A DNA stretch of 64,000 nucleotides, taken from positions 434,001 through 498,000 of the forward strand of contig NZ_CP098514.1 of the NCBI RefSeq assembly GCF_023703775.1, in the 5' to 3' direction. Within the stretch, counting starts at the first letter, position 1; each line of letters opens with the position of its first letter. The notes beneath the pieces are model-generated. The model was not told the origin of the DNA. It saw only the letters and a program-made list of their open reading frames with translations, and searched no databases. This DNA is from Haloplanus sp. GDY1. GTDB taxonomy: Archaea > Halobacteriota > Halobacteria > Halobacteriales > Haloferacaceae. Of this stretch, positions 4,934 to 24,175 are shown one piece after another. The position numbers were made by a program, and so were the translations under genes.

Positions 4934-6093
4934 AACAGCGGCTCGACGCCGCCCTCGCCGTCGCCGCTCCAGAGGAGGTCCCGCAGCCCCTCGGGTGCCT
5001 CGTCCTCGAGTTCCCGCATCGTCCGCTGGGTCTCGGCCGCGATCCCCTGGAGTTCCTTGATCCGGGGCACGTCGGTCACCCCCGAGAACAGCACGACCGC
5101 GGCGACGTAGTCGGAGTCGACCGGGGAGTCACCGCCGCGGACCTCCATGCTCCCGGTGATCTCCTCGATCCACCGACGCGCGCGCTCGATGCCCTTGCGG
5201 TCGAGGAACTCGGGAGGCCCGGCGACGACCAGGAGTGCCCGTTCGGCGCTGGAGAGTTCACAGGGGAGGGTCAGCCGTCCGAGCGCCGCCTTGCGGACCG
5301 TCGAGAGGATCCGGTTCGTCGAGTCGCCGACGTCCGGATCGGCGCGCTTCCGGGAGAACAGCCGTCGTTCGGGGCGGGTGACCGGCGTCGCCGCGTAGCC
5401 GACCGTCGAGACGCCCCCGCTGCCGAGCGTGTTGATGATCTCGCTCGCGTCGACGACGGACTCCGCGACCGGTCGGTCGTCGCTCACCTCGCCCGCCGAG
5501 AAGAGGACGCCGAGACGGCGTGCGATCTCCTCGTTGATGCGGCCGTAGCCGGCGTGGAGGCTCTCGCCGCCCTCCCGCCAGGCCTCGTTGTCGAAGACGA
5601 TCAGGTTGTCGACGTGCTCGACGAGCGTCATGAACGATCGGGCGGCGTTGAGCGAGTAGATGCTCCCCTCGTCCCGACCGGGGAGGATCCCCAGCCCGTA
5701 GACCGGTTCGCTGTACCGGCGCCGCAGTTCGCGAGCGATCACCGGGGCGGCACCGCTGCCGGTCCCGCCGCCGAGGCCGGCGACGACGAGGAAGGCGTCG
5801 AGTTCGTGGACCGCGACGTCGTCGACGACACCCATCACCTCGTCGACGTCCTCGCTCGCGACGTCGGCCCCGAGTTCGTTGTCGGCCCCGGTGCCGTGGC
5901 CCTTCAGCCGCGACCCGCCGATCAGTACCCGCCGTGCGAGCGGCGTGTACTCCAGGCCGAGGAGGTCCGCGCGGGCGGTGTTGACCGCGACGACGTCGTG
6001 GACGACGTTCCCCCTGGCCTCCCGGTCGTACGCCGTGATGGCCTCGATCACTTTCCCCCCGGCCTGCCCCACCCCGATCAGTGCGAGTTTCAT
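4930..6093 (-). CDS. cetZ: CetZ tubulin-family cytoskeletal GTPase
   Basis: CetZ proteins are haloarchaeal tubulin/FtsZ-superfamily GTPases that control cell shape and motility. This 387-residue protein starts MKLALIGVGQAGGKV and has the tubulin signature loop GLGGGTGSGAAPV near residue 105. NTARADL and the C-terminal domain follow the CetZ rather than the FtsZ pattern. The start was chosen at MKLALIGVG, because upstream codons encode a low-complexity extension across the promoter. It is divergent from the DUF7504-type gene at 6203. Which CetZ paralogue it is cannot be decided here. Confidence 0.9.
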   Translation of the reverse strand: MKLALIGVGQAGGKVIEAITAYDREARGNVVHDVVAVNTARADLLGLEYTPLARRVLIGGSRLKGHGTGADNELGADVASEDVDEVMGVVDDVAVHELDAFLVVAGLGGGTGSGAAPVIARELRRRYSEPVYGLGILPGRDEGSIYSLNAARSFMTLVEHVDNLIVFDNEAWREGGESLHAGYGRINEEIARRLGVLFSAGEVSDDRPVAESVVDASEIINTLGSGGVSTVGYAATPVTRPERRLFSRKRADPDVGDSTNRILSTVRKAALGRLTLPCELSSAERALLVVAGPPEFLDRKGIERARRWIEEITGSMEVRGGDSPVDSDYVAAVVLFSGVTDVPRIKELQGIAAETQRTMRELEDEAPEGLRDLLWSGDGEGGVEPLF

Positions 6094-6202
6094 GCCCGCC
6101 CACCGTACGCCGTCGCGGCGTATGAATGATCGGTCGGTGGGCGGGGCGGTCCGGCCGACGCGGGTGGCCGTCGGGTGATACGTTTTTACCATTTGATATC
6201 AT

Positions 6203-7264
6203 ATGCCCGTCCATATGGGGGGGCCACCCACGCACGTGGACGACGCGCTCGGGGACGCGTCGTCCATCCTGCTGCTGGCGTCGTCGGACAGTGATTTCGA
6301 CGACGACGCCTGCATCGACCTCCTGACGGCCGGCGATCCGGCGGAGACGAACGTCATCAGCGCGACCGTCACCGACCCGCCCGCCGAGCGGTTCGCCCTC
6401 TGGCAGCGCGAAGTGGGAGAGCAGTTGCCGGCCCGTGCCACGATCGTCGACGCCGGATGCGGTCGACAGCGCGAGGTCGCCGTCGGCGACGGGGTGATCG
6501 AGGGAGGGGAGTCGGTCGGTCTCACCGTCGACATGCTCCCCGAGAACGCGGAACCCATCGACCTCGGGATGACCCTCGCCCGCTATCTCGGCGCCTGGGA
6601 GTCGACGCCCGACTCCACGATGCTCTGTCTCCACTCGCTGACCGCGCTGCTCGAGGGATTCGACCGTGACGTCGTCATCTCCCTGGTATCGGCGCTCAAC
6701 GACCTGTGTGACACCGTCGGTGCCACGGCACACCACCACATGGATCCCGGGGCACACGACGACGAGACCGTCGCGACGTTCCGACCGCTGTACGACGCGG
6801 TGATCGAACACGTCACGGGCGACGGCTGGACGGTGACGAAGGCGCCGGCCGACGCCGACCGGCCGACCTTCCGCCAGTCCACGGCGCCGCCGGGCGGGGC
6901 GGCCGGTACCGATCCGAACCGCCCCGAGACGATTCCGATGCCGTACTCCTTCGATCAGACGCTCGACCTCATCTCGGTTCCGCGTCGTCGCACCCTCCTC
7001 TATCACCTGAAGGATCGCGGCTCCGGGACGATGTCGCTGGAGGAACTCGTGGACGCCGTGGTGACGCGGGAGCGGTCCATTCCGGTGCGGGAGACGCCCG
7101 AGTCGTCGGGTGCCGTCCGCGTGTCGCTCGTCCACTCCCACCTGCCCAAACTGGCCGACCTCGGTATCCTCGATTTCGACCCCGAGGCGTCGACGGTCCA
7201 GTACCACGGCAACCCCGCGCTGGAGTCGTTCCTCCGGTACGTGGAGACGCTCGAACTGGGGTGA
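6203..7264 (+). CDS. DUF7504-type protein with C-terminal winged-helix (DUF7344-like)
   Basis: This 353-residue protein has two parts. Residues about 1-195 look like the haloarchaeal DUF7504 region, a RecA/KaiC-like fold without a Walker A motif (ILLLASSDSDFDDDACIDLL, then LCLHSLTALLEG). Residues about 250-350 (TLDLISVPRRRTLLYHL to FLRYVETL) match the haloarchaeal winged-helix domain I know as DUF7344. Such pairs are thought to regulate transcription. A second in-frame ATG at 6215 fits the TATA-like TTTTTACC (6183-6190) equally well. It is divergent from cetZ. Confidence 0.75.
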   Translation: MPVHMGGPPTHVDDALGDASSILLLASSDSDFDDDACIDLLTAGDPAETNVISATVTDPPAERFALWQREVGEQLPARATIVDAGCGRQREVAVGDGVIEGGESVGLTVDMLPENAEPIDLGMTLARYLGAWESTPDSTMLCLHSLTALLEGFDRDVVISLVSALNDLCDTVGATAHHHMDPGAHDDETVATFRPLYDAVIEHVTGDGWTVTKAPADADRPTFRQSTAPPGGAAGTDPNRPETIPMPYSFDQTLDLISVPRRRTLLYHLKDRGSGTMSLEELVDAVVTRERSIPVRETPESSGAVRVSLVHSHLPKLADLGILDFDPEASTVQYHGNPALESFLRYVETLELG

Positions 7265-7346
7265 GCCCGTCGGCGGGTCGAGCCGCGCCCGGGCGACCGG
7301 ACGCCCGCGGGAAAGAACGTGCCTCTCCCCCCGGAACGGCGCGGCC

Positions 7347-7446
7347 GTGAACCGCCGACGATTCCTCGACGCGGTCGGCGTGGCCGGGATACCCCGTGTC
7401 GCGGGCTGTGCCGGCGTCGTCACTCCCGAGCGAGCGCCGAGGAGGA
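7347..7446 (+). pseudogene. Broken N-terminus of a Tat lipoprotein gene
   Basis: A GTG at 7347 opens a frame reading VNRRRFLDAVGVAGIPRVAGCAG, a twin-arginine signal with a lipobox-like ending (AGC). After about residue 30 the reading passes into the tRNA-fragment region and loses protein character, ending in the tRNA gene. It looks like a signal-peptide remnant left when the rest of a lipoprotein gene was lost. Confidence 0.45.
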
Positions 7447-22238: not shown

Positions 22239-22649
22239 ATGAGCTTCGAACTCCGACCCCACACCGCCGACGTCGCCGTCGCGGCGTCGGGGGAGTCCCT
22301 CGGCGAGACGTTCGCCGCCGTCGCCGACGGCCTCGCGGCCGCCACCTGCGACGAGATCCCCGAGACGGGCGAGCGCTTCTCGCTCTCCGTCCGCGCCGAG
22401 GGACTGGAGGCCCTGCTGTTCGACTACCTCGATCAACTGATCTACGAACGCGACGTGCGGGGCGTCCTCCCCGTCGCCAACGAGGCGACGGTCCGGGAGG
22501 CGGACGGGGCGTGGGTGATCGAGGCCAGCGCCCGGGGCGTGCCGTTCGCGGACGTCACCGCTCGGGACGTGAAGGCGGTGACCTACTCCGAGATGCGCGT
22601 CGAGCGAACCGACGACGGGTGGGAGGCGTACGTCGTCCTCGACGTGTAG
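22239..22649 (+). CDS. Archease, activator of RtcB RNA ligase
   Basis: Archease promotes RtcB guanylylation and multiple turnover. The 136-residue protein has the family signature FELRPHTADVAVAASGES at the start, with the conserved metal-binding Asp, and ends in VKAVTYSEMRVERTDDGWEAYVVLDV, also conserved. ATG 22239 gives the normal length. The rtcB gene begins 35 bases downstream on the same strand, the classic archaeal pair for tRNA splicing and RNA repair. Confidence 0.93.
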   Translation: MSFELRPHTADVAVAASGESLGETFAAVADGLAAATCDEIPETGERFSLSVRAEGLEALLFDYLDQLIYERDVRGVLPVANEATVREADGAWVIEASARGVPFADVTARDVKAVTYSEMRVERTDDGWEAYVVLDV

Positions 22650-22684: not shown

Positions 22685-24175
22685 ATGACCACGCGCGAGT
22701 TCGACGGGATCACCCTCGAACGGGTCCGGGAACACGTCTGGGAGATTCCGCGGGAGGGCGACATGCGCGTCCCCGCGCGGGTGCTGGCGAGCGAGTCGCT
22801 GCTGGAGCAGATCGGCGACGACAAGACGCTCCAGCAACTCAAGAACGCGACTCACCTGCCCGGCATGACCGGCCACGCCGTCTGCATGCCCGACGGCCAC
22901 CAGGGGTACGGCTTCCCCGTCGGCGGCGTGGGGGCGACGGACGCGAAAACCGGCTGTATATCGCCTGGAGCGGTTGGTTACGATATCAATTGCGGCGTAA
23001 GAATGATGCGAACCAACCTCACCTACGACGACGTGCGGGGCCACGAGGAGGAACTCGTCGAGGCCCTCTTCGCGAACGTCCCCTCGGGGCTCGGCGGGGG
23101 CGGCATCGTCGAGGGCGACAGGGACACCGTCGAGGCGGTCCTCTCCCGCGGCGTCGACTGGGCGCTCGAGGAAGGGTGGGCCGTCCCCGACGACCTGGAG
23201 CACTGCGAGGACGAGGGCCGCCGGCCCGACGCGGACCCCGACGCCGTCTCGCAGAAGGCGAAGGACCGCGGGAAAAACCAGTTGGGGAGTCTGGGGAGCG
23301 GTAACCACTTCCTCGAGGTTCAGCGGGTGACCGACGTCTACCGCGAGGACGTGGCCGACGCGTACGGCCTCGAACCCGATCAGGTCGTCGTCCTGATCCA
23401 CTGTGGCAGTCGGGGGCTGGGCCACCAGACCTGCACCGACTACCTCCGGAAAATCGAGAAGCGACACGGCGACCTGCTGGCGGAGTTGCCCGACAAGGAA
23501 CTCGCCGCCGCGCCCGCGGGGTCGGAGCTCGCCGAGGCGTACTACGGGGCGATGTGTGCCTGCATCAACTTCGCGTGGGTGAACCGCCAGCTGATCATGC
23601 ACCGGGTCCGGCAGGTGTTCGAGCGGGTCTTCGACCGCTCGTGGGAGTCGATGGACATGCACCTGCTGTACGACGTGGCCCACAACATCGCGAAAAAGGA
23701 GGTCCACGAGGTCGGGGGCGACCCGGCGGGAGGCGGCGACGCCGACCGCGAGGAGCGCGAACTCTACGTCCACCGGAAGGGCGCGACGCGGGCGTTCCCT
23801 GCCGGCCACCCCGAGGTGCCCACGGCCTACCGCGACGTCGGCCAGCCGATCATCATCCCCGGGAGCATGGGCGCCGGGAGCTACGTCCTCCGGGGCGGCG
23901 AGGCGTCGATGGACCTCACCTTCGGCTCGACGGCCCACGGCGCCGGCCGACTCATGAGCCGGACGCAGGCGAAAAACGAGTTCTGGGGGGAGACGGTTCG
24001 GGACGAACTCCGGGATCAGCAACACGTCTACGTCAAGGCCCAGAGCGGCGCGACGGTGGCAGAGGAGGCCCCCGGCGTCTACAAGGACGTCGACGAGGTG
24101 GTCCGCGTCTCGGACGAACTGGGCATCGGCGACAAGGTGGCGCGGACGTATCCGGTCTGTAACATCAAGGGTTAG
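22685..24175 (+). CDS. rtcB: tRNA-splicing RNA ligase RtcB
   Basis: RtcB joins 2',3'-cyclic phosphate and 5'-OH RNA ends using GTP and Mn. The 496-residue protein has the metal and active-site motifs: MPDGHQGYGFPVGG, GYDINCGVR (Asp and Cys), GSGNHFLE, HCGSRGLGHQ, and the C-terminal HGAGRLMSR containing the guanylylated His. The gene is uninterrupted. Codons over GYDINCGVR (22944-23012) are strikingly AT-rich compared with the rest of the gene. This is where RtcB inteins sit in some archaea. Its stop overlaps the stop of the convergent gene. Confidence 0.95.
   Translation: MTTREFDGITLERVREHVWEIPREGDMRVPARVLASESLLEQIGDDKTLQQLKNATHLPGMTGHAVCMPDGHQGYGFPVGGVGATDAKTGCISPGAVGYDINCGVRMMRTNLTYDDVRGHEEELVEALFANVPSGLGGGGIVEGDRDTVEAVLSRGVDWALEEGWAVPDDLEHCEDEGRRPDADPDAVSQKAKDRGKNQLGSLGSGNHFLEVQRVTDVYREDVADAYGLEPDQVVVLIHCGSRGLGHQTCTDYLRKIEKRHGDLLAELPDKELAAAPAGSELAEAYYGAMCACINFAWVNRQLIMHRVRQVFERVFDRSWESMDMHLLYDVAHNIAKKEVHEVGGDPAGGGDADREERELYVHRKGATRAFPAGHPEVPTAYRDVGQPIIIPGSMGAGSYVLRGGEASMDLTFGSTAHGAGRLMSRTQAKNEFWGETVRDELRDQQHVYVKAQSGATVAEEAPGVYKDVDEVVRVSDELGIGDKVARTYPVCNIKG

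What the first reader, a model, noticed from the sequence alone, without database searches (positions are those of the whole stretch)
22944..23012. Abrupt AT-rich codon patch over the RtcB active site: a possible intein co-conversion scar
Seen: about 23 codons (GAC GCG AAA through CGA) suddenly use ATA, CCT, GGA, GTT, GGT, GAT, AAT, GTA, AGA and CGA, while the codons on either side use GC-ending choices. The patch encodes GCISPGAVGYDINCGVR. Known: inteins interrupt RtcB at DINCG in some archaea (M. jannaschii and P. horikoshii), and homing endonucleases co-convert flanking sequence. Inference: this strain once carried an intein there, or received the flank from a carrier, and now has an intein-free allele.
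Basis: partly seen in the sequence, partly recalled or inferred. Interest (0 to 1): 0.65.

Follow-up and report, generated by a model that had tools for sequence, protein, structure and literature searches.

The report
Recoded patch at vacant intein site
A salt-loving archaeon carries, exactly where a selfish protein-intron (intein) inserts into the RtcB gene of its sister species, a 70-base stretch whose silent letters match distant relatives, and similar silent patches mark vacant intein sites in a second gene; this looks like the footprint of, and perhaps natural resistance to, a gene that copies itself into its own cut site.

Summary
Codons ~87-110 of rtcB are the most unusual true coding stretch of the 64 kb window (31.9 bits over expectation; whole-window resampling 99% = 27.7). 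They surround the vacant intein site DIN102|C103.

The intein is real and near: three sister Haloplanus species and about 40 other haloarchaea carry it. But the patch does not look like the carriers' flank. Occupied alleles nearly always read ATC AAC | TGC; vacant alleles often read ATT/ATA AAT (within-genus permutation P = 1e-4 at codon 102).

G000's codons 92-106 match intein-free alleles of another family at 43 of 45 bases, while the rest of the gene follows Haloplanus. Of 12,067 distant allele pairs, the strongest sharing of rare codons falls on this site. AT-ending codons around it vary as a block, more than anywhere else in the gene.

The pattern recurs at two polB intein sites, not at a third.

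Best reading: a homing-site conversion tract of vacant type, made when endonuclease breaks were repaired from foreign intein-free DNA, possibly kept because it alters the target. Resistance to cutting is untested. The 'intein scar' idea is partly supported: site and mobility yes, carrier origin of the core no.

The parts
22685..24175 (+). rtcB, RNA-splicing ligase RtcB, 496 aa, intein-free
   Evidence: ORF; Pfam PF01139 2e-164; PDB relatives such as P. horikoshii RtcB 1uc2, E 1.8e-155
22943..23014 (+). AT-shifted tract, codons 87-110, differing from all 11 sister Haloplanus alleles at both ends (codons 87-88 and 109-110 shared with none)
   Evidence: codon comparison; bits over expectation
22958..23002 (+). 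codons 92-106, 43 of 45 bases identical to intein-free alleles of another family (L211-L213)
22990..22991 (+). vacant intein insertion point, between N102 and the catalytic C103
   Evidence: 477-aa insertions at exactly this point in L031-L033 and other alleles
22985..22990 (+). codons 101-102 (ATC AAT): core codons that differ most between vacant (often AT) and occupied (nearly always ATC AAC) alleles; in G000 only codon 102 is of the vacant type
   Evidence: within-genus permutation P=0.00045 and 0.0001; independent pairs median P 0.04-0.06

Best explanation
The patch is a short (about 45-70 bp) conversion tract of vacant type, centred on the homing site of the haloarchaeal RtcB intein. Proposed mechanism: the LAGLIDADG endonuclease in the intein cuts vacant rtcB alleles at DIN|C; when the break is repaired from intein-free DNA of another haloarchaeal lineage (haloarchaea exchange DNA readily) instead of from an intein-bearing copy, a small synonymous segment is swapped in. 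Repeated over time, this makes the site a local recombination hotspot with block-like synonymous haplotypes; those that alter the core of the target are likely to persist because they are cut less well. Shown: the patch, its foreign affinity, the intein at the same point in sister species, the vacant/occupied codon difference, block structure, and recurrence at two polB sites. Inferred: that breaks drove it, and that the recoded core resists cleavage.
For: Inside codons 92-106 G000 shares 87% of codons with family f4 genus g62 and 42% with Haloplanus; outside, 39-50% and 67-68%. Of 12,067 distant pairs the five strongest rare-codon sharings all involve G000 at codons 91-94, and 214 of the top 300 pairs lie at this site. 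AT3 block correlation is the highest of the gene around the insertion point: 0.228, elsewhere mean -0.001, sd 0.030, max 0.164. N102 has the highest AT fraction of all Asn codons in vacant alleles (0.42; next 0.24). Occupied alleles are depleted of AT at 101/102, but not at 93-97. Replication: polB-c is the top AT window of polB (rank 1 of 794), AT at A620/Y621/T624 in 44/41/31% of 61 vacant and 0 of 18 occupied alleles (within-genus P 0.0015, 0.0003, 0.07); polB-b has the highest block correlation of polB (0.394; mean 0.017, sd 0.07), and N575 is AAT in 21% of 52 vacant and 0 of 21 occupied alleles. The endonuclease region is at least as constrained as the splicing region. The matching alleles are themselves GC-rich outside the patch (AT3 0.04-0.21), so the AT bias is not simply an AT-rich donor.
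Against: No donor of the whole 87-110 tract was found; only 92-106 is shared. Genera with known carriers are only marginally richer in AT-type vacant alleles (P = 0.077). Some occupied alleles have an AT core (L035, L241, L244), and many vacant GC-type alleles persist. polB-a shows no signal. The upstream control at polB-c was not clean (P = 0.018). The independent-pairs test on the tree is weak (median P 0.039, range 0.003-0.23). Two marker choices (AAA109, GCT569) were made after seeing the data. No cleavage was measured.
Confidence: 0.58

Rival explanations
1. One reading: G000 once carried the intein, or received its flank from a carrier, and the AT codons are the carrier's co-converted flank left after intein loss.
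For: The intein is in sister species. Outer AT codons GTT GGT TAC are shared with carriers L221 and L225. At polB-b carriers do carry AT-rich outer flanks (GCT569 76%, ATT573 67%; vacant 35%, 27%). GGA95 tends to go with the intein (median P 0.07).
Against: Carriers have GAC ATC AAC at the core; G000 and its best matches, all vacant, have GAT ATY AAT. Few carriers have an AT core. No intein remnant in G000 by search.
Confidence: 0.14
2. Mutational footprint: the endonuclease cut the site repeatedly and error-prone repair left clustered substitutions, of which only synonymous ones survived.
For: Clustering at the insertion point; the analogous proposal for mobile introns of fungal mitochondria (PMC5378118).
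Against: G000's combination of AT and GC codons is shared at 43 of 45 bases with a distant genus and nearly so with Natronococcus, which independent mutation would not give.
Confidence: 0.1
3. Conserved nucleotide signal (RNA structure, translation pausing or a regulator site) over the RtcB active site.
For: TGT91 and GGA95 are AT-ending in most alleles, with or without intein (0.88/0.94 and 0.66/0.94 in vacant/occupied).
Against: The AT core is polymorphic within genera, occurs as at least two different haplotypes, depends on intein state, and the same happens at polB-b and polB-c.
Confidence: 0.09
4. Ordinary drift or a chance run of rare codons.
For: Rare codons occur and the window is long; other stretches of rare codons exist in the scan.
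Against: Beyond the 99th percentile of whole-window resampling and shared with distant genera.
Confidence: 0.03

Closest known systems
SNP gradients at mobile self-splicing introns of fungal mitochondria (Repar and Warnecke 2017, PMC5378118)
   Same: Excess, mostly synonymous variation next to homing sites; mechanisms proposed are foreign co-conversion or error-prone repair
   Different: Here inteins in archaeal chromosomal genes; comparison between species; vacant and occupied alleles differ at the core codons; a foreign match was found, whereas that study found no donors
Haloarchaeal mcm alleles resistant to intein MCM-d, and carriage of the last N-extein codon with inteins (PMC10643990)
   Same: Flank of the insertion site differs between empty and occupied alleles; the last N-extein codon can move with the intein
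   Different: There the difference is an amino acid (Pro/Ser) that blocks splicing; here it is synonymous
polB intein homing in Haloferax volcanii (Naor et al. 2011, PMC3024317)
   Same: Active homing by gene conversion in haloarchaea; changes next to the insertion point lowered homing from 90% to 27%
   Different: Those changes were non-synonymous; single synonymous changes were said to be tolerated, so several at once, as here, are untested
Function-preserving drive-resistant alleles known from synthetic homing gene drives (own knowledge; reviews listed)
   Same: Target recoding that keeps the protein would protect an essential gene
   Different: Natural, between species, perhaps horizontally shared; resistance not demonstrated

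Membership tests
Vacant allele of an intein homing site | Homologous genes carry an intein at exactly this point | tested here: met
   About 477 aa inserted between codons 102 and 103 in three Haloplanus species and many others
Vacant allele of an intein homing site | The inserted element has an intein splicing domain | tested here: met
   Pfam Intein_splicing 4e-10, starts CLPG, ends SN|C
Vacant allele of an intein homing site | The intein encodes a homing endonuclease | tested here: inconclusive
   Size, LAGLIDADG-like motifs read by eye, and constraint on the region; Pfam gave no LAGLIDADG hit
Intein co-conversion scar | Flank matches that of intein-bearing alleles better than that of intein-free alleles | tested here: not met
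   Nearest matches are vacant; carriers are GC at the core
Intein co-conversion scar | Flank is foreign to the species' own gene | tested here: met
   Codons 92-106: 42% shared with sisters, 87% with g62
Homing-resistant allele | Target recoded while the protein is kept | tested here: met
   Core changes are synonymous: GAT, AAT, GTA, AGA
Homing-resistant allele | Endonuclease fails to cut the recoded site | not testable with these tools
   Needs a cleavage or homing assay
Conserved nucleotide element | Same nucleotides in all homologues whether or not inteins occur | tested here: not met
   AT core in 27-42% of vacant and few occupied alleles

The most novel reading that the evidence does not exclude
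Vacant intein sites in haloarchaea carry natural, function-preserving, multi-codon synonymous resistance alleles against homing endonucleases, and these spread between families as conversion tracts of well under 100 bases; G000's rtcB patch is one of them.
Probability: 0.33. Interest if true: 0.82.

Novelty: new variant of a known kind. Interest (0 to 1): 0.62.

Why it matters
How host genes escape natural homing drives is an open question that also bears on synthetic gene drives. Homing endonucleases are thought to tolerate synonymous changes in their targets (PMC3024317; the wobble-position point in PMC3943268), so a repeated synonymous difference between vacant and occupied alleles at three sites in two core genes suggests either that recoding several codons does protect, or that breaks at these sites promote exchange of tiny DNA tracts between distant species. 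Both readings can be tested in Haloferax.

Tried and rejected
Viral donor: no rtcB motif or relative in viral contigs; among phage records only Halorubrum virus BJ1 record AM491333 is near (77% identity), and its patch was not read. AT-rich donor genome: the matching alleles are GC-rich elsewhere. Exposed versus unexposed genera: only a trend, P 0.077. First codon table for intein-bearing alleles had codon 102 taken from the intein's last Asn; corrected, and only corrected data were used for the vacant/occupied tests from then on. An AT-elevated region at codons 436-446 of rtcB is a mix of unrelated codon preferences, not a block. polB codons 360-373 owe their AT excess to near-fixed GAA codons, not to a block. 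polB-a gave no signal. Literature: no paper on RtcB inteins of haloarchaea in the held library; RtcB is not in the 24 intein alleles of Soucy et al. 2014 (PMC4071816).

Full report
OBSERVATION. The gene is rtcB, window 22685-24175 (+), 496 aa. GC drops to 0.51 in 22940-23008. Measured against the codon usage of the window's genes, codons 91-109 carry 31.9 bits more surprise than expected (z = 5.0); in 500 synonymous resamplings of all window genes the maximum averaged 20.8 with a 99th percentile of 27.7. Higher values in that scan came from over-extended or out-of-frame open frames (22400, 43400, 4566) or one with a doubtful start (52259).

THE INTEIN IS REAL AND CLOSE. The window's genome (G000) is taken to be a Haloplanus: the same-genus genomes found by search include contigs identical in length to a named H. 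ruber record. Of 170 genomes of its family, 165 have a match to the protein. Three of the same genus (G069, G070, G075) have an insertion of 477 residues between N102 and the catalytic C103, starting CLPG or CLTG and ending SN. Pfam recognises the splicing domain (4e-10). Its middle region, with LAGLIDADG-like motifs read by eye (Pfam gave no hit), is at least as constrained as the splicing parts. A search of 392 genomes of the order found 44 with a match to this intein; those fetched sit at the same rtcB point. The element changes state about 35 times on the gene tree.

THE PATCH IS FOREIGN, AND ITS RELATIVES ARE VACANT. Over codons 92-106 G000 shares 87% of its codons with three alleles of genus g62 in another family (43 of 45 bases) and 80% with L216, an allele whose patch equals that of a Natronococcus (L171), but 42% with its Haloplanus sisters; outside the patch the order is reversed. 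Codons 87-88 and 109-110 match no sister, which puts the tract at 22943-23014. Among 12,067 distant pairs of vacant alleles the five strongest cases of rare-codon sharing anywhere in the gene are G000 with these alleles at this place, and 214 of the top 300 pairs fall at codons 84-105. All these alleles are GC-rich elsewhere (AT3 0.04-0.21), so the donor was not simply an AT-rich genome.

THE SITE AS A WHOLE IS UNUSUAL. In 171 vacant alleles N102 is the most AT-ending Asn of the gene (0.42, next 0.24), and C91, G95, R106 and T110 also rank first among their residues. In 62 divergent alleles the AT state of codons around the insertion point varies as a block (mean partial correlation 0.228; elsewhere -0.001, sd 0.030, maximum 0.164).

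VACANT AND OCCUPIED ALLELES DIFFER AT THE CORE. Occupied alleles nearly always have ATC AAC | TGC. Shuffling state within genera gives 5 AT at codon 102 among 32 occupied alleles where 13.5 are expected (P = 0.0001), 3 against 9.5 at codon 101 (P = 0.0005), and no depletion at codons 93-97 (P = 0.95). Independent pairs on the tree agree in direction (10.3 against 2.1 pairs, median P 0.039, range 0.003-0.23). Among alleles with the downstream marker AAA109, 32 of 35 vacant but 1 of 12 occupied ones are AT at 101/102. The outer flank behaves differently: GGA95 is commoner in carriers and the AGA...AAA ACA stretch is about as common. Either the intein carries a few bases of GC-type core with it, as reported for the last N-extein codon of mcm inteins (PMC10643990), or only GC-core alleles can be invaded. 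The present data do not separate these two.

REPLICATION IN A SECOND GENE. In polB the most AT-shifted window of 30 intein-free alleles is exactly the polB-c site YGD|TDS (rank 1 of 794); A620, Y621 and T624 are AT-ending in 44, 41 and 31% of 61 vacant alleles and in none of 18 occupied ones, with within-genus P of 0.0015, 0.0003 and 0.07 (its upstream control was not clean, P = 0.018). At polB-b (VKVIMN|S) the block correlation is the highest of that gene (0.394; mean 0.017, sd 0.07). There carriers have AT-rich outer flanks (GCT569, GTT572, ATT573) more often than vacant alleles, yet N575 is AAT in none of 21 carriers, in 21% of 52 vacant alleles, and in 11 of 17 vacant alleles with the AT haplotype. 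polB-a shows nothing.

INTERPRETATION. The simplest account that covers foreign affinity, block structure, position and the vacant/occupied difference is homing-associated gene conversion: the endonuclease breaks vacant alleles, and repair from foreign intein-free DNA swaps in a short synonymous tract. Selection for tracts that alter the target would explain why the core is AT in vacant alleles, since in GC-rich genomes almost any synonymous departure is towards A or T. That selective step is inference. A conserved nucleotide signal is disfavoured because the AT core is polymorphic, has several forms and depends on intein state. TGT91 and GGA95, common to most alleles, remain unexplained.

RELATION TO THE LITERATURE. 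Repar and Warnecke (PMC5378118) saw SNP density rise towards mobile introns in fungal mitochondria, proposed foreign co-conversion or error-prone repair, and found no donors. Naor et al. (PMC3024317) showed active polB homing in Haloferax and state that single synonymous changes are tolerated; PMC3943268 notes tolerance at wobble positions for I-AniI. The held library contained no description of the present pattern among the papers that the searches listed, but most subscription papers are not in it. RtcB is absent from the list of 24 haloarchaeal intein alleles of 2014 (PMC4071816).

LIMITS. Sampling is one genome per species; alleles are related; several contrasts were chosen after looking; no donor of the full tract was found; some carriers have an AT core and many vacant alleles have a GC core; genera with carriers are only marginally richer in AT cores (P = 0.077). 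Cleavage resistance is untested.

Noticed in passing
window 22955-22972 (codons 91-96) and the same codons in other rtcB loci: TGT91 and GGA95 are AT-ending in most haloarchaeal rtcB genes with or without intein (GGA95 is the most AT-ending of 51 Gly sites). This is a separate, unexplained nucleotide preference just upstream of the homing site.
   Followed up: partly
G000 contig C1:1498957-1502943 (L253): The window's own genome carries an intein in polB at VKVIMN|SLYG (site b), while its YGD|TDS site is vacant with AT-type codons (GGA GAT | ACG GAT TCT).
   Followed up: yes
L254 (G077) polB codons 568-582; L308 (G070): Vacant polB-b alleles of other Haloplanus species show the same kind of abrupt AT patch (GCT GTC AAA GTA ATT ATG AAT TCT TTA TAT GGT) as rtcB in the window.
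   Followed up: yes
genomes G006, G007, G098-G100, G159-G161: Several near-complete genomes of the family have no match or only a very weak one (E about 1e-4 to 1e-6) to this RtcB; in family f4, 29 of 80 genomes lack the active-site DNA pattern. They may use a diverged ligase.
   Followed up: no
inteins of L031 (Haloplanus) and L042-L045 (genus g21): The L031 intein is closer in its endonuclease region to inteins of genus g21 (pN about 0.08-0.09) than to the other Haloplanus inteins (pN about 0.12), which suggests transfer between genera.
   Followed up: partly
window 22241-22649: The small gene directly upstream of rtcB (MSFELRPHTADVAVAASGES...) looks like archease, the known RtcB partner; recognised by eye, not tested.
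   Followed up: no
phage record AM491333.1 (Halorubrum virus BJ1), 5903-7408: A record filed under a halovirus encodes a full-length RtcB 77% identical to the window's; it may be host flank of a provirus.
   Followed up: no
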